A stretch of DNA of 64,000 nucleotides from Sphingobium sp. EP60837. GTDB taxonomy: Bacteria; Pseudomonadota; Alphaproteobacteria; Sphingomonadales; Sphingomonadaceae. Made by a program: the position numbers and the translations under genes. Each line of letters begins with the position of its first letter. Positions within the stretch are counted from its first letter, which is position 1. Below are positions 6,364-62,332 of this stretch, piece by piece. The notes under the pieces are model-generated. The model made no database searches, was not told the origin of the DNA, and saw only the letters and a list, made by a program, of their open reading frames with translations. Where the stretch lies: the NCBI RefSeq assembly GCF_001658005.1, contig NZ_CP015989.1:124001-188000 (forward strand), read 5' to 3'.

Positions 6364-7245
6364 GGCTCTGTTGCAAACATGGGGCACGGCCGCGCGGCGT
6401 CACCCAGTTGGGGGATTAGGCAGCATTGGCGAAATGCTTATTGAGCATAATCATGGTTTCGGTCAGGGCCGAGGGTCCAATTCCGAATGCTCTTTCAACC
6501 AGGCGCACCTCCCCCATGATACCTGGCTGCAGGCACCATGCCTGGGCCTGTCCTTTGCGTAGGGCGCGCATGACCTCGAAGCCCTTGATCGTGGCGTAGG
6601 CCGTTGGCATCGACTTGAAGCCACGTACCGGCTTGATCAGCATCTTCAGCTTGCCGTGGTCGGCCTCGAGCACGTTGTTCAGATATTTCACCTGCCGGTG
6701 CTCGGTTTCCGCCGCCAGTTTGCCTTCGCGTTTCAGCTCAGCGATTGCTGCGCCGTAGCTGGGTGCCTTGTCGGTATTGAGTTTGGCCGGCTTTTCCCAG
6801 TCCTTCAGGCCACGAAGAGCTTTGCCCAGAAAGCGCTTCGCCGCTTTGGCGCTGCGTGTCGATGACAGATAGAAATCAATCGTGTCGCCCCGTTTGTCGA
6901 CCGCCCGGTACAGGTAGGTCCATTTGCCCCGCACCTTTACGTAGGTCTCATCCAGACGCCAGCTCGGATCAAAGCCGCGCCGCCAGAACCAGCGGAGACG
7001 CTTCTCCATCTCCGGCGCGTAGCGCTGCACCCAGCGATAGATCGTCGTATGATCGACATCGATCCCACGCTCGGACAGCATTTCCTCGAGATCACGGTAG
7101 CTGATGCCGTATCGACAATACCAGCGCACCGCCCATAGGATGACCTCGCCGGTAAAATGCCGTCCTTTGAAATCGTTCATCGCAACTGACCTTGACAGTA
7201 CATGAGCCCAATCTTGGAAACCGTGTCAGAGTTTGCAACAGAGCC
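6364..7245 (-). mobile_element. IS-A copy 1 (IS6 family, 882 bp)
   Basis: Bounded by perfect 14-bp inverted repeats GGCTCTGTTGCAAA (6364-6377) and its complement (7232-7245), the same terminal repeats as IS6100. One transposase gene fills it. The flanking 8-mers CCCTCGAG and AGGTATCG differ, so there is no target duplication; this fits IS6-family cointegrate formation or later recombination. A TTGACA at 7192-7197 points outward and could act as a -35 for adjacent DNA. Confidence 0.95.
6416..7180 (-). CDS. IS6-family transposase (IS-A copy 1)
   Basis: 254 residues, full length for the family. The N-terminal helix-turn-helix region is followed by the DDE core: [19 protein letters not shown] (first Asp), [13 protein letters not shown] (second Asp) and [11 protein letters not shown] (Glu-containing motif) are all intact. 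It is close to, but clearly distinct from, the IS6100 transposase in this window (for example [20 protein letters not shown] against [20 protein letters not shown]). Replicative transposition by this family fuses replicons, which is relevant to the structure of the whole window. Confidence 0.95.
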   Translation of the reverse strand: MNDFKGRHFTGEVILWAVRWYCRYGISYRDLEEMLSERGIDVDHTTIYRWVQRYAPEMEKRLRWFWRRGFDPSWRLDETYVKVRGKWTYLYRAVDKRGDTIDFYLSSTRSAKAAKRFLGKALRGLKDWEKPAKLNTDKAPSYGAAIAELKREGKLAAETEHRQVKYLNNVLEADHGKLKMLIKPVRGFKSMPTAYATIKGFEVMRALRKGQAQAWCLQPGIMGEVRLVERAFGIGPSALTETMIMLNKHFANAA

Positions 7246-7915: not shown

Positions 7916-8347
7916 ATGGACCAACGCGTCATTGATCTTTGGGACCGGCTCATGGCCTATGGAGAGAGCGGTTCCGCACCTCTTCCGGCGATCCGCGACG
8001 AAGTGTTGGAGCTGCACGAAGCGATCACCGATGAGGAAAGCCGGCTCGGCCTCATGCGGATATTCAATCTCGTCTGCGATCTTGTGGCGGTGCATCTCCA
8101 AGAGACGAACGGCGATCTTGAAGCCTTCGCCCAGCACCGGCAGGGCCAGATATGGATGTTCCTGCGCGCGGAATGTCTTGTCGATGGCGCGTTGGACCGG
8201 AGCCGGCTGCGATATGTGACATGGCGCGAAGTCCAGGCCGGCCGCATGACCGAGGATGATCCGCTGCGCCGCTACGCATTGGGCGATGACTCCGCCTTTG
8301 ATGAGCTGATGGCCGCGCCGACGCCACCGAAGCGGACGCGCCACTAG
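7916..8347 (+). CDS. Hypothetical protein between traG and the origin
   Basis: 143 residues, acidic and helical, preceded by GGAAGGA. No family recognised. It contains a Glu-rich helix (LPAIRDEVLELHEAITDEES) and a C-terminal part RYALGDDSAFDELMAA. Its position between traG and rep suggests a plasmid maintenance or copy-control role, but this is inference. The second copy at 61314 carries four single-base indels that break the frame. Confidence 0.6.
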   Translation: MDQRVIDLWDRLMAYGESGSAPLPAIRDEVLELHEAITDEESRLGLMRIFNLVCDLVAVHLQETNGDLEAFAQHRQGQIWMFLRAECLVDGALDRSRLRYVTWREVQAGRMTEDDPLRRYALGDDSAFDELMAAPTPPKRTRH

Positions 8348-8354
8348 GCGCGAA

Positions 8355-8378
8355 TGTATAGGCGTATACAAATATACA
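8355..8378. repeat. GTATA-type repeat cluster A
   Basis: TGTATAGGCGTATA followed by CAAATATACA. The core TGTATAGGCGTATA recurs at 10784. Candidate binding site for the RHH partner of ParA. Confidence 0.5.
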
Positions 8379-8441
8379 TGTTCGCCGTCTGTTCGCCCTT
8401 GGCGTTGTTTAGCGGACTTTCCGCGCCCTGCCCTGCCGGCT

Positions 8442-8470
8442 CTTGGCGTAGGATTCCGCCCTCTCCCGCA
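8442..8470. repeat. Solitary Tn3-type terminus remnant
   Basis: CTTGGCGTAGGATTCCGCCC and the following 9 bp match 28 of 29 positions of the right-hand terminal repeat of the transposon ending at 53234; the outermost 9 bp do not match. No transposase accompanies it here. Confidence 0.6.
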
Positions 8471-8788
8471 GCAATGTTCGGGGCCAAATCCGTGAAATCG
8501 TTGCCTGGCGCACAAACCTTGAGGCTCGCCGTTTCGATCCCCGACCTCGCGAGGATCTAGCTTTCCAGAAATCGGCCGCATGGGAAGCCCGTAGAGCGCC
8601 ATTGCCGCTTGGACCCTCCCCGGCCTGCCAAACGTCCAGAATGAAGCCCAGCGGCCCGGAAATCGCCCCTGCTGCGACGTTTCCGCCTCCCCTGCCCTCT
8701 CGGCTCGATCACCGCCCTATCCGCCTGGCTTTCCTGGAAAGCCAATTGCGACGGTGCCGCTGGCGCTGTGGTGTCGATAGAAGCGGGG

Positions 8789-8798
8789 CGTTTAAACG
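8789..8798. repeat. Palindrome CGTTTAAACG, site 1
   Basis: Perfect 10-bp palindrome in the origin region, 15 bp before the multi-hairpin element. Confidence 0.7.
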
Positions 8799-8812
8799 AT
8801 CCTCAATCTAGC

Positions 8813-8934
8813 AAAAAGCGTGCCGGCGAAGCCGGCTCATCATGGGGATGCCGGGTGGGAGGATCGCAAAGCGATCCGGGGCGGCCGAAGGCCGCGAGCC
8901 GGCGGGGGCGAAGCCCCCAAGAGGCGGCGCTTTT
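8813..8934. other. Multi-hairpin element, copy 1
   Basis: An outer stem AAAAGCG (8814-8820) / CGCTTTT (8928-8934) encloses four compact hairpins: GCCGGC-GAA-GCCGGC (8822-8836), GGATCGC-AAA-GCGATCC (8861-8877), GCGGCC-GAA-GGCCGC (8881-8895) and GGGGGC-GAA-GCCCCC (8904-8918). GCCGGCTC (8831-8838) can alternatively pair with GAGCCGGC (8896-8903). Two hairpins contain GCGAAGC, a sequence known to form exceptionally stable single-stranded DNA mini-hairpins. The element lies between the traG end and the iterons. Confidence 0.65.
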
Positions 8935-9078
8935 CTTCCCTCTGACCGGTGCCGGTAGCGCGGCGCGAGTGGATCATGCTGCCTCTGTCCCGAAAATCAG
9001 GACAAGTTGTTCGATCTGGCGGGACGCTGGTGGGTGAAACCACGATGATCCGGCGTCGAGTGGGCGCTGCGGTTAAAG

Positions 9079-9087
9079 TTATCCACA
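9079..9087 (+). promoter_or_regulatory. DnaA box
   Basis: Perfect consensus TTATCCACA, followed by an AT-rich stretch suited to strand opening, about 110 bp before the first iteron. Confidence 0.75.
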
Positions 9088-9195
9088 GGTCGGCCTAGTG
9101 TTAATATATGGGTTAAAGAGTCGTGTTACGGGATTTTGGCGGTTTCATAAGCAACTGAAAATATTAGAATAATCGGGCGTTTTTTTGCCCTCGGC

Positions 9196-9402
9196 GTCAA
9201 CGGAACCCCGAATCTGGTGACTCCAGAACCCCGAATCTGCGTCAACGAAACCCCGAATCGCGATCACCCGTCAATGAAACCCCGAACTTTTCCGTTGCGT
9301 CAATGAAACCCCGAATCTACGGTGCGCGTCAATGAAACCCCGAATCGAGCCTGACCGTCAACGAAACCCCGAACTCCCGCTTGCCGTCAATGAAACCCCG
9401 AA
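9196..9402 (+). repeat. Iterons of the RepA origin
   Basis: Six perfect copies of GTCAAYGAAACCCCGAA start at 9241, 9270, 9299, 9328, 9357 and 9386, exactly 29 bp apart. Two degenerate copies precede them (9196-9212 and one ending at 9235). Because 29 is not a multiple of three, the copies inside the repA frame are read in different phases. Confidence 0.9.
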
Positions 9403-10435
9403 CGGCGCGGAGGGACGCCCTCCCCTGCTGCCTGTTCGCTACCCCGATCCCGATCTGTTCATTTGCGATGTTCTCGACGCCATCCCCAAGGATGACATGG
9501 CCTCGATGGAGCATCCGATTTTCTCGCTCGCGACCAAGCCCGATCGGCGCGTGTTCCGCTATGAGCATAACGGCAACAAGCTCGAAATCGTCCCCAGCGT
9601 CAAAGGGCTGGCGACGATCCACGACAAGGATATTCTGATCTACTGCATCTCCCAGCTCATCGGGAAGATGAACCAGGGGGAGCGACCGAGCCGCACCTTG
9701 CACCTCACTGCTCGCGATCTACTGGTGTGGACCAACCGGCAAACCGATGGCGACGGCTATGACCGGCTGCGGAGCGCGTTCGAGCGGCTGTCGGGGACGC
9801 GGATCACCACGAATATCAAGGCCGATGGCGAGGAAATCACCGAAGGTTTCGGCCTCATCAATGAATGGCGGATCGTGCGGCAAACCCGCTCCGGCCAAAT
9901 GTCGGAAATCAAGGTCACGCTATCCGACTGGCTGTTCAAGATGGTTGAGGGGCGCAGCGTCCTGACGCTCCATCGCGACTATTTCCGCCTCCGCAAGCCG
10001 CTCGAACGGCGTATCTACGAGCTGGCGCGCAAGCATTGCGGCGCGCAGGAAAAATGGTCGATCTCGGTCGAAACGCTACAGAAAAAGACCGGCGCGAGTA
10101 GCCATTTGCGCGTGTTCCGCTCGATGCTGCGCGATCTCGTCGCGCACGATCATCTGCCCGACTATGCCGTGGAAATGAACGGCGATACGGTCACGTTCCG
10201 CAATCGCGAGGCTCTGGATACGGTCGAGGCGATCGAGGCGGAACCCGAGCGGCCCTATATCGACCCCGAAGGCTTCCACGACGCCAAGAGCGTTGCGCCT
10301 GGCTATGACGTTTACGCGCTCTATGACCAATGGGTGTCATGGTGGATCGACAGCGGGCGGCCGGAACTGAAAAGCCCCCGCGCCGCCTTCATCGGCTTCT
10401 GTCGCAACAAGCACAAGACTGCCCCCTTGCGCTAG
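9332..10435 (+). CDS. repA: Plasmid replication initiator RepA (RPA family)
   Basis: 367 residues. The conserved region begins at about residue 40 (PDLFICDVLDAIPKDDMASM, then EHPIFSLATKPDRR and YEHNGNKLEIVPSVKGLATI), a pattern of the RPA-type initiators of alphaproteobacterial plasmids, which bind iterons and open the origin. The N-terminal 24 residues are encoded by iteron DNA; ATG 9332 is part of iteron 9328-9344 and is the only start codon in frame before the conserved domain (next Met is residue 55). Binding of RepA to its iterons would therefore cover its own start region, suggesting autorepression. No good Shine-Dalgarno is visible, so the true start is uncertain. Confidence 0.9.
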   Translation: MKPRIEPDRQRNPELPLAVNETPNGAEGRPPLLPVRYPDPDLFICDVLDAIPKDDMASMEHPIFSLATKPDRRVFRYEHNGNKLEIVPSVKGLATIHDKDILIYCISQLIGKMNQGERPSRTLHLTARDLLVWTNRQTDGDGYDRLRSAFERLSGTRITTNIKADGEEITEGFGLINEWRIVRQTRSGQMSEIKVTLSDWLFKMVEGRSVLTLHRDYFRLRKPLERRIYELARKHCGAQEKWSISVETLQKKTGASSHLRVFRSMLRDLVAHDHLPDYAVEMNGDTVTFRNREALDTVEAIEAEPERPYIDPEGFHDAKSVAPGYDVYALYDQWVSWWIDSGRPELKSPRAAFIGFCRNKHKTAPLR

Positions 10436-10483
10436 TATAGGTGTATAGATGTATAGGTGTATAATTGTATACATCTATACTAG
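10432..10483. repeat. GTATA-type repeat cluster B
   Basis: Lies between the convergent repA and RHH stops. It has direct repeats of GTATAGGTGTATAG type on the left and an inverted end CTATACTAG, and can fold as a hairpin. It may be a partition site and also a bidirectional terminator. Confidence 0.55.
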
Positions 10484-10764
10484 CCGGCGATGCGCCCCCT
10501 TCCCTTCTTCACAAACAGGTCGTCCAGCGCCTCGCCCAGCAGGCTTTGAACGGTCGTCCCTTCCTCGGCCGCGATAATGCGAAGCTGCGTGCTGACCTCG
10601 GGAGGGAAATGCCCGCCAATCAGCTTGGTCCCCTGTCGGCCGCTCGGCGGGGCCTTGCGGGTCACGTCTACCGGCTCGATCGCCGACGCTGGGGCCGGGG
10701 CCGCGTCTCCGTCCGCCTTGGCGCGGTTCAGCACCGCTTGCAGACTGTTTCCGCCCTTCGCCAT
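10480..10764 (-). CDS. ParA partner, ribbon-helix-helix-type protein
   Basis: 94 residues from ATG 10764, which overlaps the parA stop (TGATG). A basic, flexible N-terminus precedes a C-terminal RHH-like segment GGHFPPEVSTQLRIIAAEEG that continues TTVQSLLGEALDDLF. The arrangement (ParA-type Walker ATPase followed immediately by a small RHH protein) is that of type Ib partition systems such as ParF/ParG, in which the small protein binds the centromere and represses the operon. GTATA repeats lie on both sides of the operon. Confidence 0.75.
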   Translation of the reverse strand: MAKGGNSLQAVLNRAKADGDAAPAPASAIEPVDVTRKAPPSGRQGTKLIGGHFPPEVSTQLRIIAAEEGTTVQSLLGEALDDLFVKKGRGRIAG

Positions 10765-11399
10765 CACGCCACCTCCGCCTGATTGTATAGGCGTATATTT
10801 GTATACTCGTATAGTCGGCGGATTTCGTCGGCCGCTGGCCCATGCGGCTCGAACTCCTGCACGGCCCGGCCTGCGGCTTGGGCGCGGAAAAAGGCTTTGC
10901 GGTTGCCGATCGTCACCGGGCAAACCGTCGCGCCTAGCTCCGCCACGGCCTGAATCGCATCGCCAGTTTCCTGACCTTGCGGGGGCACGAAGGTAAGGAC
11001 CACGGCAAAGGCGCGGTCGAGCTGGCGCACCACGTCGAGGGTGTGCGTCATGCTCATCGTGTCGAACACGGCCGTCTTAGTCGGGATCAGGATGAAATCA
11101 GCGTGACGCGCTGCCTCATAGGCCACGTCGCGCGCGACCGCCGCCCCGTCGATCACGACAAGATCGGTGCCGGCGTCCTCGCAGGCTTTGAGCATAGCGG
11201 GCAGGCGCACCGGCTGAATCGACGCCACGGCGGGCGTGTCGAGCTGGCGCACGTCCTTCCAGAACGAGGCCGTCGCCTGCGGGTCCAGGTCGATGATCGC
11301 GGCGACCTTGCCCGCCTGCTCGGCCGCGACTGCCAGACAGGTCGCGAGCGTCGTTTTCCCAACGCCGCCTTTCTGTGAGAGAATGGCGAGAACCTTCAT
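10764..11399 (-). CDS. parA: ParA-family partition ATPase (backbone 1)
   Basis: 211 residues. The deviant Walker A box SQKGGVGKTT is at residues 8-17, followed by AAIIDLDPQATASFWKD (switch region) and DLVVIDGAAVARD. It powers segregation of the plasmid together with the RHH protein encoded immediately downstream. The last dozen codons (RLYEYTNIRLYNQAEVA) are made of GTATA-type repeat DNA, so a candidate centromere cluster lies inside the gene end. Another cluster lies just upstream of the start. Confidence 0.9.
   Translation of the reverse strand: MKVLAILSQKGGVGKTTLATCLAVAAEQAGKVAAIIDLDPQATASFWKDVRQLDTPAVASIQPVRLPAMLKACEDAGTDLVVIDGAAVARDVAYEAARHADFILIPTKTAVFDTMSMTHTLDVVRQLDRAFAVVLTFVPPQGQETGDAIQAVAELGATVCPVTIGNRKAFFRAQAAGRAVQEFEPHGPAADEIRRLYEYTNIRLYNQAEVA
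10784..10814. repeat. GTATA-type repeat cluster C (inside parA 3' end)
   Basis: TGTATAGGCGTATA, then TTTGTATACTCGTATAG; shares its first 14 bases with cluster A. It is translated as the ParA tail. Confidence 0.55.
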
Positions 11400-11413
11400 G
11401 CTACACTCCTACA

Positions 11414-11438
11414 CGTATAATCCTATACTTGTATACAC
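11414..11438. promoter_or_regulatory. GTATA-type repeat cluster D upstream of parA
   Basis: ACGTATAATCC then TATACTTGTATACA, ending 15 bp or more upstream of the parA ATG (11399). Candidate operator of the par operon. Confidence 0.55.
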
Positions 11439-11520
11439 AATAGACCGGGAGGGGAAGCCCTGTCGTTCCCGAAATGACGATAGGGAGGCGCTGAATCTGA
11501 AATGACGAAAGCGCGCCGCA

Positions 11521-12152
11521 TCATTCCTCCGGTTCGGCGTCGTCATCGTCCAGCGGCTCATGCTCCATCTGGCCGTGATCCTCGATCGGGCAAAGCGGCG
11601 CTCCGGCCTGCTCAAGCCATTTGCGCGCGGTCCTCACGGTATAGCCGCACGTCGCGCACTCGCATTTGAGCATCCGGGTTTTCTGCTTCTTGGGCGCGGT
11701 CGACTCCCCGTCCGTGTCGAGACGGGCATGGGGGAGGGGGCCAACGCACTCCAGGATCGGCGCGATGGCCGCAAGGAACGCCTCGCCGGGGGTGGTGGCG
11801 CGCATCGGCCCGACCAGCCCCAGCCCAAGGGCGACCCGTTAAACGTCTTCCCATGCCCTGCCGGGATGCCGACAGCGGCATGGACCAGCTCATGCGCGAG
11901 GATGGCTGCGATCTGCGCCGGCATCGCGTCGGGCGCGTGCGCCAGGTCCGGGCGGATGAAGATTTCAAAATGCCCGTCCGCGCTCAACCGATTATCCCAG
12001 CACTCGCCAATCGCCTTGGCCTTCGCGCCTCTGCTGGTGAAGCCGATCGCCACGCGCACGCGGTCGGGCAGGGGGGCGTCCAGCACCTCGAACAGCGGGG
12101 CCATGCCCGCCGCCACCGCATTGAGCCAGCTTTCGCGGGTTTCGTGGGTCAT
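11521..12152 (-). pseudogene. SprT-like zinc protein, frameshifted (backbone 1)
   Basis: The N-terminal part from ATG 12152 (MTHETRESWLNAVAAGMAPL) includes the metalloprotease motif HELVH; the C-terminal part from about 11835 down carries the zinc-ribbon CECATCGYTVRTARKWLEQA. They lie in different frames. Compared with the intact homologue at 54243-54878, one T is missing in the run at 11838-11844 (CGTTAAACG here, CGTTTAAACG there). Either the gene is broken or this is a sequencing error. Confidence 0.8.
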
Positions 12153-12567
12153 CGTCCTTACTCCCTTCAAATCGCCTGTTCGGCGATGGCCATGCCATCG
12201 GCCGGAACACGGACGCCCAAGAACGCCGGCGAGAGAGGGGGGCAGCGGGATTCGATGGGGGTGGTGCGGCCGCAGCGCAGCGAGGCACGGCCCCGTCTAA
12301 TCCCGTTGCGGGGGAGAGGCGGCCGGGACCGCCTTTCCCCCTTCAAACAGGATCGACGCCGGCGCACGCCGGCACCATGAAGCGAGACCCGCTTGCGATC
12401 TCGCCCCCGCCATGTGGGTCGTCACCTTGGGCCAAGACCGCTTGCGGGCTTGGGGAACGAAGCGAGTAGGGCCACGGTGCCGCGCCAGCGGCAGGCGCCG
12501 CCCCCTAGCCTGGATTGAAATTGTTGCTCAACTGAGCTACATTATCGGCTTGACTAAGGAGGTTCCA
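12153..12567. other. Spacer between SprT-like gene and toxin-antitoxin
   Basis: No gene is supported. Much of it (about 12171-12480) has a diverged counterpart at 54898-55200 in backbone 2, including the near-repeat GCCGGCGCACGCCGGC (about 12358-12373). The end holds the antitoxin promoter region. Confidence 0.4.
12526..12537. promoter_or_regulatory. Operator-like inverted repeat upstream of relB
   Basis: GCTCA-AC-TGAGC, about 30 bp before the antitoxin ATG; a typical place for autorepression by RelB/RelE. Confidence 0.4.
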
Positions 12568-12849
12568 ATGGCCGCTACCGCTTTCGTGCGCGCGCGCATC
12601 GACGAAACATTGAAGGATGAAGCCGCCGCCGTGCTGGCCGAGCTGGGGCTGACCGTCTCGGATGTGGTCCGCATGACCCTCACGCGGGTCGCCAAGGATC
12701 ATGCGTTGCCGTTCGAGCTGAAGGTGCCGAACGCCGAGACGCGCGCCGCGATCGAGGCGTCCCGCGCGACGATGAAGGCTCGCCGCGCCCGTTTCACCGA
12801 TGCCCAGGAAATGTTCGATGCCCTCGACCAAGAAGCCCGCCAGCAGTAA
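12568..12849 (+). CDS. RelB/DinJ-family antitoxin
   Basis: 93 residues from ATG 12568, preceded by a near-perfect TAAGGAGGT. The N-terminal RHH segment FVRARIDETLKDEAAAVLAE and GLTVSDVVRMTLTRVAKD are typical of RelB/DinJ antitoxins, which bind DNA with the N-terminus and wrap the toxin with the C-terminus. A much longer upstream frame is rejected because of this start signal. It overlaps the toxin gene by 32 bp. Confidence 0.85.
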   Translation: MAATAFVRARIDETLKDEAAAVLAELGLTVSDVVRMTLTRVAKDHALPFELKVPNAETRAAIEASRATMKARRARFTDAQEMFDALDQEARQQ

Positions 12850-13138
12850 GCGGGCGGCGTTCCCAAGAGAGGCGTCCTACGAAAAAAGGTTCGTCAAGGA
12901 TTGGGAGCGGCTGTCGCGCAGCGGGCGCTACAACATGAAACAGCTCAAGGAGGCGATGATGATGCTCATCGCCAACGACGCGCCGTTAGGCCCGGAATGG
13001 CTGGATCATCCGCTGAAAGGCGATTGGAGCGATCATCGCGAGTGCCATATCGGCGGCGATTTCCTGCTGATCTATACGATTGAGGGGAATCTGGTGAACT
13101 TCGTGCGCGCCGGCACTCATGCGGAACTGTTTGAATAG
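12818..13138 (+). CDS. RelE/YafQ-type mRNA interferase toxin
   Basis: 106 residues from ATG 12818, inside the end of the antitoxin gene. YEKRFVKDWERLSRSGRYNM, then LGPEWLDHPLKGDWSDHREC and HIGGDFLLIYTIEGNLVNFV follow the YafQ pattern (His-rich Leu-x-Gly-x-trp core, Arg/His catalytic set). Family members cleave mRNA at the ribosome. Together with the antitoxin it forms an addiction module for backbone 1. Confidence 0.85.
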   Translation: MPSTKKPASSKRAAFPREASYEKRFVKDWERLSRSGRYNMKQLKEAMMMLIANDAPLGPEWLDHPLKGDWSDHRECHIGGDFLLIYTIEGNLVNFVRAGTHAELFE

Positions 13139-13140
13139 CC

Positions 13141-13761
13141 ATGCGCGTAATCTTCATTCGCCACGGCGAATCTACCGGCAACGCCGGCGTGCCCTGCCAC
13201 GATCTCGGCGCGATCGAGCTGACGGAGCTGGGCCAGGAACAGGCACGCGAAGTCGCGGCGAGCTGGATAGAAGCGCCCGCGCTCATCGTCACGTCGCCCT
13301 ATACCCGCACGCAGCAGACGGCTGCGCCAACGATCGCGCGCTTTCCCGGCGTGCCGGTGGAAGTGTGGCCGATAGAGGAGTTCACCTATCTGCAACCGGC
13401 GCGCTGGAACGGCACGCGCAGCGCGGAGCGGATGCCGCACCTCGAACGCTATTGGAGCGCGGCCGATCCTGATTATTGCGACGGGGAAGGGGCGGAGAGC
13501 TTCGCCACCCTGCTCCGGCGCTGCGAGGCCGCGCTGGCGCGGCTCGCCGCCATGCCGCCCGCCTCGCTGGTCTATGTGTTCGGGCATGGGCAGTTCATCC
13601 AGGCCGCGCGCGCGATCGTGGCCGACGCTCATCTTGACGATCAGGCAAAGATGCGCGCCTTCTGGCGCAAGGGCGAGCCGCCAGCGATCAGCAACGCGCA
13701 GCGGGTAGGATTCCGCTGGCATGGCAGGCGCTGGGAATGTGCGCCGGCGATCGCCGCCTAA
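13141..13761 (+). CDS. Histidine phosphatase (phosphoglycerate mutase-like), backbone 1
   Basis: 206 residues. The catalytic RHGEST motif is at residues 7-12, a second region has SPYTRTQQTAAPTIARFPG, and the second catalytic His is in YVFGHGQFIQ. Substrate unknown. It starts 2 bp after the toxin stop, so it is co-transcribed with the toxin-antitoxin pair. A homologue sits in the same place behind an unrelated toxin-antitoxin pair at 56088, which suggests a real functional link to plasmid stability. Confidence 0.85.
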   Translation: MRVIFIRHGESTGNAGVPCHDLGAIELTELGQEQAREVAASWIEAPALIVTSPYTRTQQTAAPTIARFPGVPVEVWPIEEFTYLQPARWNGTRSAERMPHLERYWSAADPDYCDGEGAESFATLLRRCEAALARLAAMPPASLVYVFGHGQFIQAARAIVADAHLDDQAKMRAFWRKGEPPAISNAQRVGFRWHGRRWECAPAIAA

Positions 13762-13794
13762 ATCAACGCCAGAGAGGGCGGGGGGCGTCGCTCA

Positions 13795-14340
13795 TCACCC
13801 CTGTAGCCGCGAAATCGTCGCTTGGCTGACGTTGAACAGCGCCGCGACCGATCGCTGGGTGTCGCCTGCGTCGAGCTTGCGCCGCGCCTCGGCCTGCTGG
13901 TGCGGGGTGAGGGCGCTCTTGCGGCCGAACTTGACCCCGCGCGCCTTGGCCTGGGCGCGGCCAGCGCTGGTGCGCTCGGCGATCCGCTGGCGCTCGTAGC
14001 TGGCCGCGACGCCTAGAACGGCAATCACAACTTCGGCGAGCTGCGAGGTCGTGTCCACCATCGGTTCGGCGATCGAGCGGAAGCCGGCCCCGGCCTCCTT
14101 TACCGCATGGAGGATGTTCAAGAGGTCGCGCGTGTTGCGGGCGAGGCGATCGGTCGCCGTCACCATCAGCACGTCGCCGGGATCGAGCGCGCCGATCGCG
14201 CGCTTGAGCTGGGGCCGCTCGGCCGACGCGCCGCTGATCTTCTCGCGGTAGATCTTCGCGCAGCCCGCCGCCTCAAGCTGGGCGAGCTGCTGGGCCAAAT
14301 CTTGGCCGTTGGTGGAGACGCGCGCATAGCCGTAAATCAT
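13795..14340 (-). CDS. Serine recombinase (resolvase/invertase family)
   Basis: 181 residues from ATG 14340 (MIYGYARVST, catalytic Ser 9); an ATG five codons upstream (14355) is possible. The catalytic domain shows LMVTATDRLARNTRDLLNIL and the C-terminal helix-turn-helix is RSVAALFNVSQATISRLQG. Likely a multimer resolution system of backbone 1 or a transposon resolvase. It points toward the histidine phosphatase gene. Confidence 0.85.
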   Translation of the reverse strand: MIYGYARVSTNGQDLAQQLAQLEAAGCAKIYREKISGASAERPQLKRAIGALDPGDVLMVTATDRLARNTRDLLNILHAVKEAGAGFRSIAEPMVDTTSQLAEVVIAVLGVAASYERQRIAERTSAGRAQAKARGVKFGRKSALTPHQQAEARRKLDAGDTQRSVAALFNVSQATISRLQG

Positions 14341-14490
14341 GGCGCGATTCTGCATCAGATTTTTGCATCAGGGAAGGGCACGGAAAAGCGCGGCTTTTGG
14401 TTTGATGCGAAACTTTTGACTTCGCACCAGAGCTTTTCCTGTGTGCCCTTTGGCGGGATAACCGAACACACCAGCATTGCTGTCGCTCGC
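14341..14490. other. Spacer with direct repeat TTTTGCATCAGGG
   Basis: TTTTGCATCAGGG at 14361-14373 is repeated at 14977-14989, in both cases followed by a similar AAGGG run. The pair brackets the secreted-protein gene and begins 20 bp from the recombinase start. No gene is visible. Confidence 0.4.
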
Positions 14491-14901
14491 TTAGTTCACG
14501 CAGACAGGCACCCTAATCGTATTCATTGGGCCTCCACCTGCGCTCGCTATATGACGAGTTTGCCAGACGGTACGGGTACACTTGCCCTTTTTACGGTTTT
14601 TGCTCGTCGGTTGTTCTCGAGGCGGGGGCGCTGAATTGGCTTGGCTATTCGCCGGTTCGCGTGGGGGACAGATACCTTGCCTTTCCATGATTTCGCGATG
14701 GCGCCTTCCCTGCTCACCGGCCCAGGCATCGGCCTTGGTTTTCCCTTCAGCCAGAAACCGCCGCTTGTATTCCGCCGTGAGGCGCGCCTTGTCTGCTGCG
14801 GGAATAGACGAGGAGGAGCAGCGAGGGATTTCTTCAGCGGATACAGGCAGCGACCAAAGCAAGACTGCCATAGTAGTGGCAGCAATAAAAATACGTAACA
14901 T
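14491..14901 (-). CDS. Hypothetical secreted protein
   Basis: 136 residues. Signal peptide MLRIFIAATTMAVLLWSLPV followed by SAEE. The mature part has four cysteines (IPRCSSSS, GICPP, KCTRTVWQ, PVCVN), consistent with disulphides, and a Pro/Asn-rich middle. Not recognised. It sits between two copies of TTTTGCATCAGGG. Confidence 0.6.
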   Translation of the reverse strand: MLRIFIAATTMAVLLWSLPVSAEEIPRCSSSSIPAADKARLTAEYKRRFLAEGKTKADAWAGEQGRRHREIMERQGICPPREPANSQANSAPPPREQPTSKNRKKGKCTRTVWQTRHIASAGGGPMNTIRVPVCVN

Positions 14902-18702: not shown

Positions 18703-19582
18703 GGCTCTGTTGCAAAGATTGGCGGCAGTCAGAGGTAGGCTGTCGCTCTGCGCCGATCAGGCGGCTGCTGCGAAATGGTGGTTGAGCATGCCCATGGCCT
18801 CCGTCAGCGCCGAGGGCCCAATGCCAAAAGCTCTCTCCACAAGGCGCACCTCGCCCCTGATGCCGGGCTGCAGGCACCAGGGGCGAGCCTGTCCTTTGCG
18901 CAGGGCTCGCATGACTTCGAATCCCTTGATCGTGGCATAGGCCGTGGGGATCGATTTGAAACCGCGCACCGGCTTGATCAGTATCTTGAGCTTTCCGTGA
19001 TCGGCCTCGATCACGTTATTGAGATACTTCACCTGCCGGTGGGCCGTCTCCCGGTCCAGCTTTCCTTCGCGCTTCAATTCGGTGATCGCTGCACCATAGC
19101 TCGGCGCTTTGTCGGTATTGAGCGTGGCAGGCTTTTCCCAGTGCTTCAGGCCTCGCAGGGCCTTGCCCAGGAACCGCTTCGCTGCCTTGGCGCTGCGGGT
19201 CGGCGACAGGTAGAAATCGATCGTGTCGCCCCGCTTGTCGACTGCCCGGTACAGGTAGGTCCACTTGCCCCGCACCTTGACGTAGGTTTCATCCAGGCGC
19301 CAGCTCGGATCAAAGCCACGCCGCCAGAACCAGCGCAGCCGCTTCTCCATCTCCGGGGCGTAGCACTGGACCCAGCGATAGATCGTCGTATGGTCGACCG
19401 AAATGCCGCGTTCCGCCAGCATTTCCTCAAGGTCGCGATAGCTGATCGGATAGCGACAATACCAGCGCACCGCCCACAGGATCACATCACCCTGGAAATG
19501 GCGCCACTTGAAATCCGTCATCGTTCCGTCCGTCCAATCTCCGCCAAGCATGCTCAAGCTTCACGATTTTTGCAACAGAGCC
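18703..19582 (-). mobile_element. IS6100 copy 1
   Basis: 880 bp with perfect terminal GGCTCTGTTGCAAA repeats. Inverted relative to copy 2 at 24473; the two bracket the TonB-receptor island. Flanking 8-mers CACCACCT and TTCGTAAC do not match each other. Confidence 0.95.
18757..19521 (-). CDS. tnpA: IS6100 transposase
   Basis: 254 residues from ATG 19521 ([20 protein letters not shown]); an ATG 12 codons upstream (19557) is annotated as start by some. DDE residues intact ([24 protein letters not shown]). Recognised as IS6100 by its full sequence and the 880-bp element length. Confidence 0.95.
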
Positions 19583-19594
19583 TTCGTAACGCAT
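19583..19594 (-). pseudogene. Start of an operon gene destroyed by IS6100
   Basis: After the LVIVD gene on the minus strand there is GGGAG (19602-19606), then ATG at 19594, followed by only three more native codons before the IS6100 end at 19582. It was probably the next gene of the receptor operon; its identity is lost. Confidence 0.4.
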
Positions 19595-19819
19595 GTTCTT
19601 CTCCCTTGGAGCGACCCTTGGCTCATTGCCTGATCGGTCGCTCAAGTTGCTCGGTCCAGCAATGTGCGGCGGGAGGCGGAGAACGCGCCCAGCCATGATC
19701 GCGGCGAGCGCGAACAAGCCTCCCGCACTGTTTTGCGCCTCGCCGCGACGAAAGGGGCTCCGTCATCTACCCCCCGCCGACAGCCCTCAAGCCGAGCCGC
19801 CAGCGGCCGACACAGGTTA
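19595..19819. other. Spacer after the LVIVD gene
   Basis: No gene is supported. A Pro-rich minus-strand frame is probably chance. Confidence 0.3.
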
Positions 19820-21541
19820 TCACTTCACGGTCGGGAAGCCGAGGCGAGCGCGAAGGTCCGGATTCAGTTCGACAACGTGGAAACCGGTCGTGACGCAGGC
19901 GAACCAGATGTGCCCGGACTCGGGAACATAGCGTACATGCGACGCACACCCGTCGCTTACCTGGTCGTTCAACCCTGTCCTCCAGTTTAGCCAGCTTAGC
20001 CCGTTGCCACTTAGCGGGGTATCGGGATTCGCACCCGGCTTATAGTAGCCGACTTCAACCGGCTTTGTAGGATCGCGCAAATCAACGATCCTCACTCCGC
20101 CAGCGAAGAAGGGGAACAGACCAAGCCTCGTGTTCCTTGCATCGTCGACATCGTTGTAATGCGAGGCAACCGCGCCGAGGCGCTCGGTGATGTCTGGGAT
20201 GAGGAAGCTCGCATAGGGATCCTCCTTCCGAGGAGTAAATCGTATCGCGTCGCAGTTCTCCTTGATATTCATTTGCAGCTTGAACTCGCCGACGACCTTT
20301 GGATTCTTCTCGTCCGCGATATTGATGATCCGCGGCCATGTTCCAGGACAGGCGCCCAGTTCGGCCGCACCCACCAGGTGTGGAACTCCGTTGATCGACG
20401 CGGGCACGACAGAATGCAAACCGCCTTGCTTGGCTTCGCCGACGAGCCTCATCTTCGGTTGAGAGCGCCCATCGACGATGTCGCTGTTATCGAGAATGTA
20501 GACGCTGCCGTTCTCCACAGGCACGTCCCCGGTTTCGGAGGCGAAGACAGCCGCGTAGATCCGCCGCTCATCACGGCTGATCGACACTTCATGTGGCGTG
20601 AACCCAGCCGTCAATCCATTGGGTCGCGTGACGCCGAAGCGGCCGAGATAGCGGGGGCGCTTCATGTTGCTGATGTCGAGCACATGCACGCCACCCTTCC
20701 CCGAACCGAGTCCGGGCACGAGTTCTGTACCGTAGACGCGACGACCGTTGGGAGAGATTGTCACCATGTGGATGTTGGCGGGCCACTTGAACTCGCTCTG
20801 CAATTTGGGATTCAGGCAGTTCGAGGCATCGTAGATGCTGAGCCAAGCTGCGTCCTCCTCGCCCCGGCCAGCAATTCCTCCCGAGTAGGCGCCGGCGACG
20901 AGAACTTTGCGACCTGGTGCCGCAATCGCGTGCATCGTCTCTACCGCATCGATCGAGCCCCGGTCCCGCAGCAAGCGCACGGGCTTTGGAGCCCGGGGGT
21001 CCCTTACGTCGATAACCGCGACGCCCGCTGGCTCGCGGAGGAACAAGGCAGATCGGCTGTTGGCGGTTGCCGGGCCTGTCTGCTTGACGGTGGATACATA
21101 GGCACATTGATCGACCCATGAGAGCTGTATATTGCCGCCGCGGTTCCAGATGTCCGTGCGACCGACGAGGCGAACGCCAGCATGATAAGGAAGTTTGGAC
21201 CGGCCGCTCACCACGTCTTCGATCGTGGTTTGGCCCTGAAGCCCGGTTTCGGGGCGATCGCCGGGACCAATGACGACCTGGGAAGACGCCGGCCATCCGC
21301 TACACAGACAGGCTAGGCCGAGCGGGGCAACGACCGCGAGCCTCCGAATCTTGGTGGCTGTCACCGCAGTCAGGCGCGAAAGAGCCTCTGTGGTGCGGAT
21401 CGTCGGTGAACGCCGCGATGCTCTATCGTGCGTCGCCGCCCCGATCTCGACCATGCCCGGCTTCATGACGCCGACCGGTTTGGCGGGCAAATCATCGGCA
21501 AGAACAACATTCCCATGCGCTTCGCTTAACATCCGCAACAT
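19820..21541 (-). CDS. LVIVD-repeat beta-propeller protein, exported
   Basis: 573 residues from ATG 21541, preceded by GGAGAG. A long N-terminal region leads into a hydrophobic segment LAVVAPLGLACLCSG (about residues 68-82 of this start), a possible signal or lipobox. The body has repeated blades such as PAGVAVIDVRDPRAPKPVRL, GGVHVLDISNMKRPRYLGRF and GGVRIVDLRDPTKPVEVGYY, the LVIVD pattern of seven-bladed propellers. Function unknown; such proteins occur beside TonB receptors in sphingomonads. In frame upstream lies a SnoaL-like remnant, so a fused 671-residue product from 21835 is possible. Confidence 0.75.
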   Translation of the reverse strand: MLRMLSEAHGNVVLADDLPAKPVGVMKPGMVEIGAATHDRASRRSPTIRTTEALSRLTAVTATKIRRLAVVAPLGLACLCSGWPASSQVVIGPGDRPETGLQGQTTIEDVVSGRSKLPYHAGVRLVGRTDIWNRGGNIQLSWVDQCAYVSTVKQTGPATANSRSALFLREPAGVAVIDVRDPRAPKPVRLLRDRGSIDAVETMHAIAAPGRKVLVAGAYSGGIAGRGEEDAAWLSIYDASNCLNPKLQSEFKWPANIHMVTISPNGRRVYGTELVPGLGSGKGGVHVLDISNMKRPRYLGRFGVTRPNGLTAGFTPHEVSISRDERRIYAAVFASETGDVPVENGSVYILDNSDIVDGRSQPKMRLVGEAKQGGLHSVVPASINGVPHLVGAAELGACPGTWPRIINIADEKNPKVVGEFKLQMNIKENCDAIRFTPRKEDPYASFLIPDITERLGAVASHYNDVDDARNTRLGLFPFFAGGVRIVDLRDPTKPVEVGYYKPGANPDTPLSGNGLSWLNWRTGLNDQVSDGCASHVRYVPESGHIWFACVTTGFHVVELNPDLRARLGFPTVK

Positions 21542-30773: not shown

Positions 30774-31655
30774 GGCTCTGTTGCAAACATGGGGCACGGC
30801 CGCGCGGCGTCACCCAGTTGGGGGATTAGGCAGCATTGGCGAAATGCTTATTGAGCATAATCATGGTTTCGGTCAGGGCCGAGGGTCCAATTCCGAATGC
30901 TCTTTCAACCAGGCGCACCTCCCCCATGATACCTGGCTGCAGGCACCATGCCTGGGCCTGTCCTTTGCGTAGGGCGCGCATGACCTCGAAGCCCTTGATC
31001 GTGGCGTAGGCCGTTGGCATCGACTTGAAGCCACGTACCGGCTTGATCAGCATCTTCAGCTTGCCGTGGTCGGCCTCGAGCACGTTGTTCAGATATTTCA
31101 CCTGCCGGTGCTCGGTTTCCGCCGCCAGTTTGCCTTCGCGTTTCAGCTCAGCGATTGCTGCGCCGTAGCTGGGTGCCTTGTCGGTATTGAGTTTGGCCGG
31201 CTTTTCCCAGTCCTTCAGGCCACGAAGAGCTTTGCCCAGAAAGCGCTTCGCCGCTTTGGCGCTGCGTGTCGATGACAGATAGAAATCAATCGTGTCGCCC
31301 CGTTTGTCGACCGCCCGGTACAGGTAGGTCCATTTGCCCCGCACCTTTACGTAGGTCTCATCCAGACGCCAGCTCGGATCAAAGCCGCGCCGCCAGAACC
31401 AGCGGAGACGCTTCTCCATCTCCGGCGCGTAGCGCTGCACCCAGCGATAGATCGTCGTATGATCGACATCGATCCCACGCTCGGACAGCATTTCCTCGAG
31501 ATCACGGTAGCTGATGCCGTATCGACAATACCAGCGCACCGCCCATAGGATGACCTCGCCGGTAAAATGCCGTCCTTTGAAATCGTTCATCGCAACTGAC
31601 CTTGACAGTACATGAGCCCAATCTTGGAAACCGTGTCAGAGTTTGCAACAGAGCC
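30774..31655 (-). mobile_element. IS-A copy 2
   Basis: Identical to copy 1 over 882 bp as far as I can read. Flanks AACCGCGC and CCGGGGGA. Confidence 0.95.
30826..31590 (-). CDS. IS6-family transposase (IS-A copy 2)
   Basis: 254 residues, same protein as 6416-7180. Confidence 0.95.
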   Translation of the reverse strand: MNDFKGRHFTGEVILWAVRWYCRYGISYRDLEEMLSERGIDVDHTTIYRWVQRYAPEMEKRLRWFWRRGFDPSWRLDETYVKVRGKWTYLYRAVDKRGDTIDFYLSSTRSAKAAKRFLGKALRGLKDWEKPAKLNTDKAPSYGAAIAELKREGKLAAETEHRQVKYLNNVLEADHGKLKMLIKPVRGFKSMPTAYATIKGFEVMRALRKGQAQAWCLQPGIMGEVRLVERAFGIGPSALTETMIMLNKHFANAA

Positions 31656-45268: not shown

Positions 45269-45391
45269 AAAAGCGTGCCGGCGAAGCCGGCTCATCATGG
45301 GGGATGCCGGGTGGGAGGATGGCTTTAGCCATCCGGGGCGGCCGAAGGCCGCGAGCCGGCGGGGGCGAAGCCCCCAAGAGGCGGCGCTTTT
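45269..45391. other. Multi-hairpin element, copy 2
   Basis: Same plan as 8813-8934: outer AAAAGCG / CGCTTTT, then the same GAA-loop hairpins. The second hairpin is GGATGGC-TTTA-GCCATCC here against GGATCGC-AAA-GCGATCC in copy 1: one stem pair changes from C:G to G:C with both partners altered, and the loop sequence differs. Pairing is thus kept while sequence changes. Confidence 0.65.
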
Positions 45392-45428: not shown

Positions 45429-45437
45429 TTATCCACA
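45429..45437 (+). promoter_or_regulatory. DnaA box
   Basis: TTATCCACA, perfect consensus, about 110 bp before the iteron array. Confidence 0.75.
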
Positions 45438-45751: not shown

Positions 45752-46664
45752 ATGAATCATGCAACCTCACCTGTAAATGGCGGAAAGGCAAAGGTTGCCC
45801 TGGACGGCGACACCGCTCTGACCCTCGCGCAAAAGGGACGCGGCAATCCCTTTGATCCCGCCAATTATGGAGAAATTGTCAAACCCGGCGAGCTGGTCGA
45901 TATTGTCGAGCTGTCCCCCCCTCACCCTCGCCGATCGGCGAATCTATAACCTGCTGATCGCCAACGCCTGGGAGCGGATCGGCGAGCCGGTCATCCACCG
46001 CATCCCGAAAAGCGCGCTCAAAGGCACGCACCAGGGCAATGAGCGCATAGAAAGCTCGCTGCTGCGCCTGATGGGCACCATCGCGATCGTCACGATCCGC
46101 AAGGGCGGCAAGAGCTTTAAGCGCCGCGTCCAGCTTCTCGGCCCCAGCGATGAAAGCCTCGAAAAAGACGGGTTCCTGCATTACCGCATCCCCGAAGAAC
46201 TGATTGAGATTTTGCGTAACAGCGAGGTCTATGCCCGCCTCAAGACGCAAGTGATGTATTGTTTCGAGTCGAAATACGCGCTCTGCCTCTATGAAATGAT
46301 CGAGCGCCGTATCGGCCTCGAATACAAGCAAAGCGAGGAGTTCACTATCGCGGAGCTGCGCGGCCTGCTCAACGTGCCGGAAGGCAAGTTGGAACGCTTC
46401 GCCGATTTCAACAAATACTGCCTCAAGGTCGCTCAAGAGGAAATCAACAAGCTCTGCCCCTTCTGGGTCGAGTTCACCCCGATCAAGAAGGGCCGCAAGG
46501 TCGAGCGGGTTTCGATGATGTGGCTTCCCAAGACCATGAGCGGCCGTCGCGACGCGCAAAACCTGATCGACCAGCATAGCATTGTGCGGCGGGCGAAGCT
46601 GCGCGGAGACATACCCGAAATGCCGGTGCTGGTGGATTTCAGCGCGCCAGCGGCCCAAAGGTGA
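45752..46664 (+). pseudogene. repB: Rep_3-family replication initiator, frameshifted by one C
   Basis: The N-terminus (ATG 45752) runs to ELVDIVELSP; the main Rep_3 domain continues in another frame from LTLADRRIYNLLIANAWERI to KAKLRGDIPEMPVL-like tail, with two winged-helix regions (LHYRIPEELIEILRNSEVYA; YALCLYEMIERRIGLEYKQS). A run of seven C at 45915-45921 would restore one 303-residue frame if it had six. Initiators of this family bind iterons as monomers. Either the gene is dead, which would leave RepA to replicate the cointegrate, or the run is a sequencing error. Confidence 0.85.
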
Positions 46665-62210: not shown

Positions 62211-62332
62211 AAAAAGCGTGCCGGCGAAGCCGGCTCATCATGGGGATGCCGGGTGGGAGGATCGCAAAGCGATCCGGGGCGGCCGAAGGCCGCGAGCCGG
62301 CGGGGGCGAAGCCCCCAAGAGGCGGCGCTTTT
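62211..62332. other. Multi-hairpin element, copy 3
   Basis: Identical to 8813-8934. Confidence 0.65.

What the first reader, a model, noticed from the sequence alone, without database searches (positions are those of the whole stretch)
8813..8934. Covariation-supported multi-hairpin element shared by two different origins
A 122-bp element is closed by AAAAGCG/CGCTTTT and contains four short hairpins with GAA or AAA loops. It occurs at the same place (traG end, element, DnaA box, iterons) in the RPA-type origin (8813-8934, 62211-62332) and the Rep_3 origin (45269-45391), although the initiators and iterons are unrelated. The second hairpin differs by a compensatory C:G to G:C change with a different loop (AAA against TTTA), so pairing rather than sequence is kept. 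GCGAAGC mini-hairpins are unusually stable in single-stranded DNA. The element may be a single-strand initiation or termination site, or a structured RNA made from the traG side. I know of no described element of this form.
Basis: partly seen in the sequence, partly recalled or inferred. Interest (0 to 1): 0.72.

Follow-up and report, generated by a model that had tools for sequence, protein, structure and literature searches.

The report
Single-strand hairpin module of plasmid origins
A short stretch of DNA that folds into several tight hairpins when single-stranded is shared, facing the same way, by the replication origins of many otherwise different bacterial plasmids, and it probably tells the host where to start copying one particular DNA strand.

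Summary
The hairpin element is real and belongs to a wide family. Relatives sit at plasmid origins in alpha-, beta- and gammaproteobacteria and Acidithiobacillus, beside five initiator types. It is not a chromosomal repeat (matches in 2 of 385 class genomes). Polarity follows the origin, not the rep gene: iterons lie right of the element in 80 of 83 loci, a DnaA box in 71 (left: 3 and 0), while rep is read away in 58 and towards it in 31. Stems covary. Selection points to + strand folding: 9 of 9 H2 mismatches are G.T or G.A; GN(N)A loops outnumber their complement 211:4 in core plus left 200 nt, 64:53 elsewhere. Energies alone do not separate the strands. GNA/GNNA loops mark very stable DNA minihairpins. 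In RK2-type origins this is probably the TrfA-bound strand; in 19 of 20 plasmids it is antisense to the relaxase gene, hence the likely transferred strand. Best reading: a single-strand initiation (ssi) site, probably homologous with the G+C-rich end of IncP-1 oriV. No function was tested. The outer AAAAGCG/CGCTTTT stem is not conserved.

The parts
8844..8927 (+). Copy A, conserved core (GGGGATGCCGGGTGGGA ... AAGAGGCGG) of the RPA-type origin
   Evidence: covariance model R1, 107.1 bits (copy A is among the 8 sequences R1 was built from)
8822..8836 (+). Copy A, 5' hairpin H1 GCCGGC(GAA)GCCGGC (variable in the family); read on the - strand it is a terminator-like site with a T-rich tail
   Evidence: GN(N)A hairpins are enriched in the 200 nt left of the core
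8850..8854 (+). Copy A, 5' strand of putative long-range helix PL (GCCGG; partner 8899-8903 CCGGC)
   Evidence: 0 broken cells but only G-C to G-U changes, no compensatory pair: pairing not proven
8861..8877 (+). Copy A, hairpin H2 GGATCGC(AAA)GCGATCC
   Evidence: all 8 family pairs show two-sided changes
8881..8895 (+). Copy A, hairpin H3 GCGGCC(GAA)GGCCGC
8904..8918 (+). Copy A, hairpin H4 GGGGGC(GAA)GCCCCC; nearly invariant stem, loop GNA with all four N in the family
   Evidence: stem and GNA loop were fixed by the pattern for its 73 loci
8919..8927 (+). Copy A, nearly invariant tail AAGAGGCGG (AAGAG invariant in 19 sequences of A1), predicted mostly unpaired
9079..9087 (+). DnaA box TTATCCACA right of copy A
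9193..9404 (+). Iterons (CGTCAAYGAAACCCCGAA) of the RPA-type origin; limits approximate
9332..10435 (+). RPA-family replication initiator ORF (start codon uncertain; the ORF overlaps the iterons)
   Evidence: PF10134 E 4e-98
45300..45384 (+). Copy B, conserved core of the Rep_3-type origin
   Evidence: 105.8 bits (also among the 8 sequences of R1)
45317..45334 (+). Copy B, hairpin H2 GGATGGC(TTTA)GCCATCC, compensatory to copy A
45338..45352 (+). Copy B, hairpin H3
45361..45375 (+). Copy B, hairpin H4
45429..45437 (+). DnaA box right of copy B
45852..46664 (+). Rep_3 initiator ORF (start codon uncertain)
   Evidence: PF21205 E 1.6e-14 and PF01051 E 5e-7
62242..62325 (+). Third copy of the core, identical to copy A; part of a repeat that reaches the contig end, not an independent copy

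Best explanation
The element is a single-strand DNA initiation (ssi/sso-like) module built into plasmid oriVs. It lies beyond the DnaA box and AT-rich opening region, on the side away from the iterons, and its + strand is the one shaped to fold. When the + strand becomes single-stranded, stable C(GNA)G and C(GNNA)G minihairpins, plus conserved stretches (GGGTGGGA, AAGAGGCGG), form a landmark that host primase or primosome proteins can read. The primer made there starts synthesis leftward, away from the iterons. The + strand would be single-stranded on two occasions: when the initiator opens the origin, where + would be the leading-strand template for a leftward fork, and when the plasmid enters a recipient by conjugation, because + is the predicted transferred strand. 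Shown here: the family, its fixed polarity, covariation, strand-specific signs of selection for a fold, and the strand relation to relaxase genes. Inferred: that + is the TrfA-bound strand in RK2 (from the printed 13-mer consensus), recruitment of primase or primosome, priming, the direction of the fork, and the dual use.
For: Polarity is fixed to the origin and independent of rep orientation; the same holds in 53 non-redundant loci (iterons right 50, left 3; DnaA box right 42, left 0). Hairpins covary: 98.1% of cells paired against 85.0% in shuffles, 160 two-sided cells against 41.9 (alignment fitted to the model). Signs of fold selection are on the + strand: 51 distinct H2 hairpins hold 334 Watson-Crick pairs and 9 others, all G.T (5) or G.A (4), none A.C or C.T; GN(N)A against TN(N)C loops are 130:1 in the core and 81:3 in the left 200 nt, but 64:53 among 773 hairpins elsewhere within 2 kb. 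GNA and GNNA loops on G-C stems define extraordinarily stable DNA minihairpins (PMC4686876, passage). The two classical complementary-strand origins looked at hold such sequences: GCGAAGC in the phiX174 F-G gap and GCGAAAGC inside the annotated G4 primer region (chance not computed). The RK2 13-mer consensus as printed in PMC4081077 (taken as the top strand, as I recall the convention) matches the - strand when the element is +, so + would be the 'bottom' strand that TrfA binds and where the replisome assembles (PMC4980987 and PMC4081077, passages). The relaxase gene is on the opposite strand in 19 of 20 plasmids, and the element lies in the first half of the predicted transfer path in 19 of 20.
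Against: No function was tested. Predicted folding energies do not single out the + strand: z-scores for - are similar or stronger (copy A -3.9 against -3.8, L122 -2.1 against -2.6, L025 -3.8 against -5.2), and the L007 core (z -0.1) and L028 (z -0.9) do not beat shuffles. PL pairing has no compensatory change. Minimal relatives lack H2 and H3 (L028, L122). L028 lies on a 996-kb contig beside an ArdA gene, with no iterons and no DnaA box within 700 nt, so oriV is not its only setting. In the phiX174 stretch GCGAAGC has too short a stem to be listed as a hairpin of 4 or more pairs. The 20 relaxase cases are not phylogenetically independent, and one (pGDIA01) goes the other way. The transferred-strand claim assumes a relaxase gene read away from oriT. 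24 of 122 records are typed non-mobilizable. The phiX-type AAGCGG motif (recalled) is not in the core. GC skew gives only weak support for leftward unidirectional replication (-0.037 left, -0.061 right after averaging gene strands).
Confidence: 0.5

Rival explanations
1. A vegetative-replication element only: the folded leading-strand template positions the initiator, helicase or clamp, or sets the first primer at oriV. The relation to the transferred strand is a by-product of replication and transfer running in the same direction.
For: Strict coupling to DnaA box and iterons (71 and 80 of 83). Presence on 24 of 122 plasmids typed non-mobilizable. RK2 replisome assembly probably on the same strand.
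Against: The orientation relation to relaxase genes (19 of 20) is tighter than that to the rep gene (58 against 31). One relative (L028) sits beside an anti-restriction gene without iterons.
Confidence: 0.22
2. A polar fork barrier, a transcription terminator at the origin's edge, a G+C clamp that bounds origin opening, or a pSC101-par-like stability site.
For: Very G+C-rich, next to the DUE, on one side only. In copy A, H1 read on the - strand is a terminator-like hairpin with a T-rich tail; 4 terminator-like sites were found in window 8500-9500 against 1.4 expected. The pSC101 par layout is recalled, not tested.
Against: A clamp needs neither compensatory changes, nor one-strand mismatch types, nor GNA loops. 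The A/T arms that make H1 terminator-like are part of the outer stem that is not conserved.
Confidence: 0.1
3. An Frpo-like single-stranded promoter used on the entering transferred strand to express neighbouring genes early.
For: In RP4 the most strongly zygotically induced gene is klcA, encoded on the transfer strand, and no single-stranded promoter has been identified for the induced genes (PMC7314908, passages). In R751 an antirestriction gene (klcA by position; named klcA in L018) lies left of the element and is read leftward. L028 lies between ArdA and a methylase gene.
Against: Known Frpo structures present -10 and -35 boxes in duplex (PMC11541004 and PMC7690428, passages). The stems here are G+C-rich, and no sigma-70-like site overlaps the element in the window. 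RP4 induction can also come from missing repressors (PMC7314908).
Confidence: 0.08
4. A structured non-coding RNA transcribed rightward through the element.
For: Compensatory pairs, G.T pairs and + strand preference are equally expected for RNA.
Against: Loops are mostly GNA triloops and GNNA, with one GNRA tetraloop (GTGA) among 71 distinct H2/H3 hairpins (H2 could not be parsed in 8 and H3 in 18 of 79 unique cores). In six relatives H3 shrinks to GCGNAGC, a fold known for DNA. No Rfam match at the gathering score in the window. No sigma-70-like promoter upstream in window 8500-8813 (other promoter types not covered).
Confidence: 0.06
5. A recombination or selfish repeat that hitch-hikes between plasmids.
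For: The window's two origins share traG-end sequence (81%) and the element (95%), then differ, which looks like module swapping.
Against: One match per locus in 65 of 65 at E <= 1e-4, fixed polarity, rarity in whole genomes.
Confidence: 0.04

Closest known systems
G+C-rich end of the IncP-1 (RK2, R751) oriV
   Same: Same place beyond the AT-rich 13-mers, same order of hairpins on the same strand. The bridge L018 (trfA plasmid) has an R751-like 5' half and a sphingomonad-like 3' half.
   Different: RK2-type L025, R751 and L026 lack the PL strands and AAGAGGCGG and score only 17.5-23.1 bits. The word 'GC-rich' does not occur in the main texts held of PMC4980987 and PMC4081077.
G4-type and phiX174-type single-strand initiation signals; RSF1010 ssi sites in oriV
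   Same: Stem-loops on the template strand (recalled). GNA or GNNA minihairpin sequences are present in the phiX174 and G4 regions. RSF1010 has ssi signals in its oriV region (title of Honda 1988, in the reference list seen).
   Different: No BLASTN match to phage records; priming activity untested; the RSF1010 record was not held.
Frpo/ssi single-stranded promoters of F-like plasmids
   Same: Would fold on the transferred strand.
   Different: No -10/-35 duplex seen; tied to oriV rather than to the leading region beside oriT.
sso of rolling-circle plasmids and of ICEBs1 (PMC4595007, search listing only)
   Same: Would serve conversion of transferred single strands.
   Different: Host group; sequences not compared by any tool.

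Membership tests
IncP-1 oriV G+C-rich region | Lies next to the AT-rich DUE, on the far side from the iterons | tested here: met
IncP-1 oriV G+C-rich region | Sequence homology with RK2/R751 | tested here: inconclusive
   R751 23.1 bits (E 0.0057), RK2-type 18.2, L026 17.5, each at the expected place; but other weak matches score alike (L011:2874-2966 22.8, L006:1101-1188 17.6), so the case rests on place, hairpin order and the bridge L018
Single-strand initiation signal (ssi) | Starts complementary-strand synthesis on single-stranded DNA | not testable with these tools
   needs an ssi-selection or in vitro priming assay
Single-strand initiation signal (ssi) | Structure favoured on one strand | tested here: met
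   mismatch types and loops: yes; folding energies: no difference
phiX174-type primosome assembly site | AAGCGG motif (recalled) | tested here: not met
   the core reads AAGAGGCGG; phiX174 has AAGCGG
Frpo single-stranded promoter | -10 and -35 boxes in hairpin duplex | tested here: not met
   no sigma-70-like site overlaps 8813-8934; stems G+C-rich
REP-type chromosomal repeat | Many scattered chromosomal copies | tested here: not met
   3 places in the own genome, all on contig C4; 2 of 385 class genomes with a match
Rfam RNA family | Score above a family's gathering cut-off | tested here: not met
   0 matches in the window; in 4 relatives one sub-threshold match, left of the core of L007
oriT | Adjacent to the relaxase gene | tested here: not met
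   1.9 to 28 kb from the relaxase 5' end in 20 plasmids

The most novel reading that the evidence does not exclude
A portable single-strand start signal written in a DNA-specific fold code (C-closed GNA and GNNA minihairpins with PL and AAGAGGYGG), read by host enzymes, combined by plasmids with several kinds of initiator, and used twice: for the leading strand at oriV and for converting the entering transferred strand to double strand. It would be the missing ssi of IncP-1 plasmids and of MOBQ plasmids of alphaproteobacteria, and would explain why its orientation follows the relaxase rather than the rep gene.
Probability: 0.3. Interest if true: 0.86.

Novelty: new variant of a known kind. Interest (0 to 1): 0.7.

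Why it matters
How iteron plasmids lay down the first primer, why most theta plasmids replicate in one direction (PMC6312765, passage), and how broad-host-range plasmids turn the transferred single strand into a duplex in distant hosts are open questions. A conserved, strand-specific, initiator-independent element at the right place gives each a concrete site to test. It also gives a covariance model that can locate and orient origins on unannotated plasmids. In the papers searched (listings, and passages of 11 papers; open-licence PMC only) I saw no description of this family. The pPDL2 paper (PMC3516476, passages) shows iterons, AT-rich region, DnaA box and inverted repeats; its mini-replicon interval 18,815-20,914 would hold the element (19279-19402 in NC_019376, if the numbering is the same).

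Tried and rejected
Outer closing stem as a family feature: rejected. REP-like chromosomal repeat: rejected. Known RNA family: no match. Phage origin: no match at E <= 1e-5 in 50,697 phage records. Element tied to traG or to the rep gene's strand: rejected. oriT: rejected. SGI1/IncN oriV as a described relative: passages read, no such element described in them. GC skew as proof of replication direction: too weak. Folding energy as a strand test: does not discriminate. First regex was too strict and the script failed; repaired, which still missed L019, L024, L025, L026, L028 and L116 (all but L116 were then looked at; L124 and L116 gave no core there). The structural alignment A4 leaves out L013 (large insert), and its counts lean towards the model it was fitted to. 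Of the 106 loci, 23 had a flank shorter than 700 nt and were left out of the polarity count; the 83 kept hold near-duplicates, so the count was repeated on 53 non-redundant loci. The 73 loci were picked by an exact pattern that fixes the H4 stem and its GNA loop (40 of the 66 loci), so H4 loops are not evidence there; H2, H3 and the left flank were free.

Full report
What is there. The copy at 62211-62332 belongs to an exact 6379-nt repeat, distance 53,398, that ends at the contig end, so the window holds two independent copies. The own genome has three places at E <= 0.001, all on contig C4.

How far it spreads. BLASTN finds 122 plasmid records at E <= 1e-5 and 135 at 1e-2, mostly Sphingobium, Acetobacter, Komagataeibacter, Xanthomonas and Sphingomonas, and also Caulobacter, Methylorubrum, Acidiphilium, Aquincola, Diaphorobacter, Paracidovorax, Fluviibacter and Acidithiobacillus. 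No phage record matches at E <= 1e-5. A pattern scan of genome contigs gives 73 stretches, on contigs of at most 169 kb. With covariance models (R1 from 8 sequences; R2 from 65) it is rare in whole genomes: 2 of 385 in the class, one being the own genome; 9 of 298 in the family, own genome included; 1 of 38 around G136, which is G136 itself; and 4 of 369 in the class of a Variovorax genome already known to have it, that genome included and one of the others marginal (E 9.6e-4). The three large searches used stricter filters, which lose some weak matches. This is not a chromosomal repeat.

It belongs to the origin, with fixed polarity. In 106 loci with a recognisable core, 83 had 700 nt on both sides: iterons (a 9-mer at least three times) lie right of the element in 80 and left in 3, never more on the left than on the right; a DnaA box (TTWTNCACA) lies right in 71 and left in none. 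On 53 non-redundant loci the figures are 50, 3, 42 and 0. With 11 initiators as queries an initiator gene was found within 4 kb in 91 of 106, on the right in 89, on the left in 2 (both loci are pGDIA01, where the record start cuts the right side). It is read away from the element in 58 and towards it in 31. The query initiators fall in RPA, Rep_3, TrfA and RepA_C, and one has no Pfam match (9 of the 11 queries were scanned there). So the element keeps its orientation to the opening region and iterons while the gene flips, which rules out an mRNA leader of rep as a general role. Relatives found later by the model (L122, L123, L125) show the same polarity.

Anatomy. Consensus: GGGGAT-GCCGG-GTGGGA-[H2]-GGGG-[H3]-GAG-CCGGC-[H4 GGGGGC GNA GCCCCC]-AAGAGGCGG, with further hairpins to the left. 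GCCGG and CCGGC (PL) never break in 64 distinct sequences, but change only to G-U, so pairing there is plausible, not proven. H2 covaries at all eight pairs. Over 65 loci 98.1% of cells pair (shuffles 85.0%), 160 cells have two-sided changes (shuffles 41.9), and sliding the partners by 1-3 columns destroys it (covariation 0.269 against at most 0.023). The alignment was fitted to the model; the hairpin-by-hairpin count needs no alignment. Minimal members keep only PL, H4 and AAGAGGYGG: L122 in an origin, L028 on a 996-kb contig. H2 and H3 therefore look like optional insertions.

Which strand, and DNA or RNA. In 51 distinct H2 hairpins the 9 non-Watson-Crick pairs are G.T (5) or G.A (4) on the + strand; on the - strand they would be A.C and C.T. 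Among 66 non-redundant loci, loops of the form GN(N)A against TN(N)C number 130:1 in the core and 81:3 in the 200 nt to its left, but 64:53 in the 19 other 200-nt bins within 2 kb. H4 loops were fixed by the pattern in 40 of these 66 loci; the left flank, H2 and H3 were not. Against this, predicted folding energies do not single out a strand: z-scores of the - strand are similar or stronger, and the L007 core and L028 do not beat shuffles at all. GNA or GNNA loops on G-C stems are the definition of the extraordinarily stable DNA minihairpins (PMC4686876, passage), whose stability general energy tables may not carry (inference). RNA would rather favour GNRA tetraloops, of which one occurs among 71 distinct H2/H3 hairpins. 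In six relatives (L016, L031, L034, L040, L047, L054) H3 is reduced to CGAGCGNAGCGAG, a two-pair GCGNAGC minihairpin next to what would be tandem G.A pairs (sequences; the stability of tandem G.A is recalled). The + strand as single-stranded DNA is the best-supported folding molecule.

Link to IncP-1. L018, a trfA plasmid of Xanthomonas hydrangeae, carries the full core next to RK2-like 13-mers and iterons. R751, an RK2-type origin remnant (L025) and L026 match at the expected place with 23.1, 18.2 and 17.5 bits; other weak matches in the same search score alike, so scores alone do not prove it. The same succession of hairpins at the same place and L018, which joins both forms, do most of the work. 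I read the G+C-rich end of IncP-1 oriV as a diverged member. The 13-mer consensus printed for RK2 (PMC4081077), which I take to be the top strand by recalled convention, matches the - strand when the element is +. The hairpin strand would then be the 'bottom' strand that TrfA binds and on which the replisome assembles for unidirectional replication (PMC4081077, PMC4980987, PMC6312765; passages). That makes + the leading-strand template for a fork leaving towards the element (inference). GC skew agrees weakly.

Link to transfer. In 22 plasmid records a MOBQ or MOBP relaxase domain was found in 20; it lies on the strand opposite to the element in 19 (12 of 13 MOBQ, 7 of 7 MOBP). Relaxases typically lie in the last-transferred region (PMC11541004, passage). 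If the gene is read away from oriT (an assumption, not tested), the element's + strand is the transferred strand, and the element sits in the first half of the path in 19 of 20 (mean 25%; the wrong-way plasmid is counted). For RP4, klcA is described as encoded on the transfer strand (PMC7314908, passage); in R751 the antirestriction gene at the klcA place and the relaxase are both opposite to the element. These plasmids share backbones, so the sign-test value (4e-5) overstates the case.

Mechanism. The simplest account that uses all of this is a single-strand initiation site: unwinding at oriV, or entry of the transferred strand, exposes the + strand; the minihairpins form; primase or a primosome loads and primes leftward. 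phiX174 and G4, whose complementary-strand origins are such signals (the phiX site is recalled; the G4 site is annotated), carry GCGAAGC and GCGAAAGC there. RSF1010 is a precedent for ssi in oriV (title seen). Every step after 'hairpins form' is inference, and the hairpins themselves are inferred from sequence. Rivals, in order: a purely vegetative structural site, a barrier, terminator or clamp, a single-stranded promoter, an RNA, a hitch-hiking repeat.

Novelty. The kind (structured single-strand signals at plasmid origins) is known and one distant member (IncP-1 G+C-rich end) is a known segment. The family across initiator types, its DNA-specific loop code and its strand rule were not seen in ten full-text searches of open-licence papers (listings) or in the passages read of 11 papers; subscription papers, including the older RK2 origin dissection literature, were out of reach.

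Noticed in passing
window 8319-14697 and 61717 to the contig end (68095 in window numbering): Exact 6379-nt repeat at distance 53,398 that stops only at the contig end; a 1-nt indel lies just before it. It could be an unresolved circular 53.4-kb plasmid or an end overlap, so the 192-kb contig may not be one true molecule.
   Followed up: partly
window 6416-7180, 18757-19557, 30826-31590, 34296-35060, 57107-57871, 59814-60578: Six copies of a transposase region, five identical over 300 nt and one 81% alike; the first matches PF13610 (DDE_Tnp_IS240), so an IS6-type element, likely a driver of cointegrate formation.
   Followed up: partly
L028; L117:9270-9330 (G136 contig 1): A minimal element in a 41% G+C stretch on a 996-kb contig, between an ArdA gene and DNA methylase and Vsr genes, with no iterons or DnaA box within 700 nt; possibly an integrated mobile element. 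The only PF03432 relaxase match in that genome is on another contig.
   Followed up: partly
L025 (AB576781.2): An RK2-type oriV lies beside tet(A) in this Salmonella plasmid. Many Escherichia and Salmonella records match the L018 origin over 97% at 68% identity and may hold the same remnant; they were not examined.
   Followed up: no
L023/L092 (pGDIA01): The only one of 20 plasmids with the relaxase on the same strand as the element; it has a Rep_3-like gene left of the element and what reads like the start of another on the right.
   Followed up: no
L016, L031, L034, L040, L047, L054 cores; long H3 forms in L008, L009, L018, L020, L021: H3 is either a two-pair GCGNAGC minihairpin or a long stem flanked by GNA/GNA-like internal loops, suggesting that GNA is a recurrent module in the element.
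   Followed up: partly
window 8822-8836, - strand: H1 with its T-rich tail is a terminator-like site for leftward transcription.
   Followed up: no
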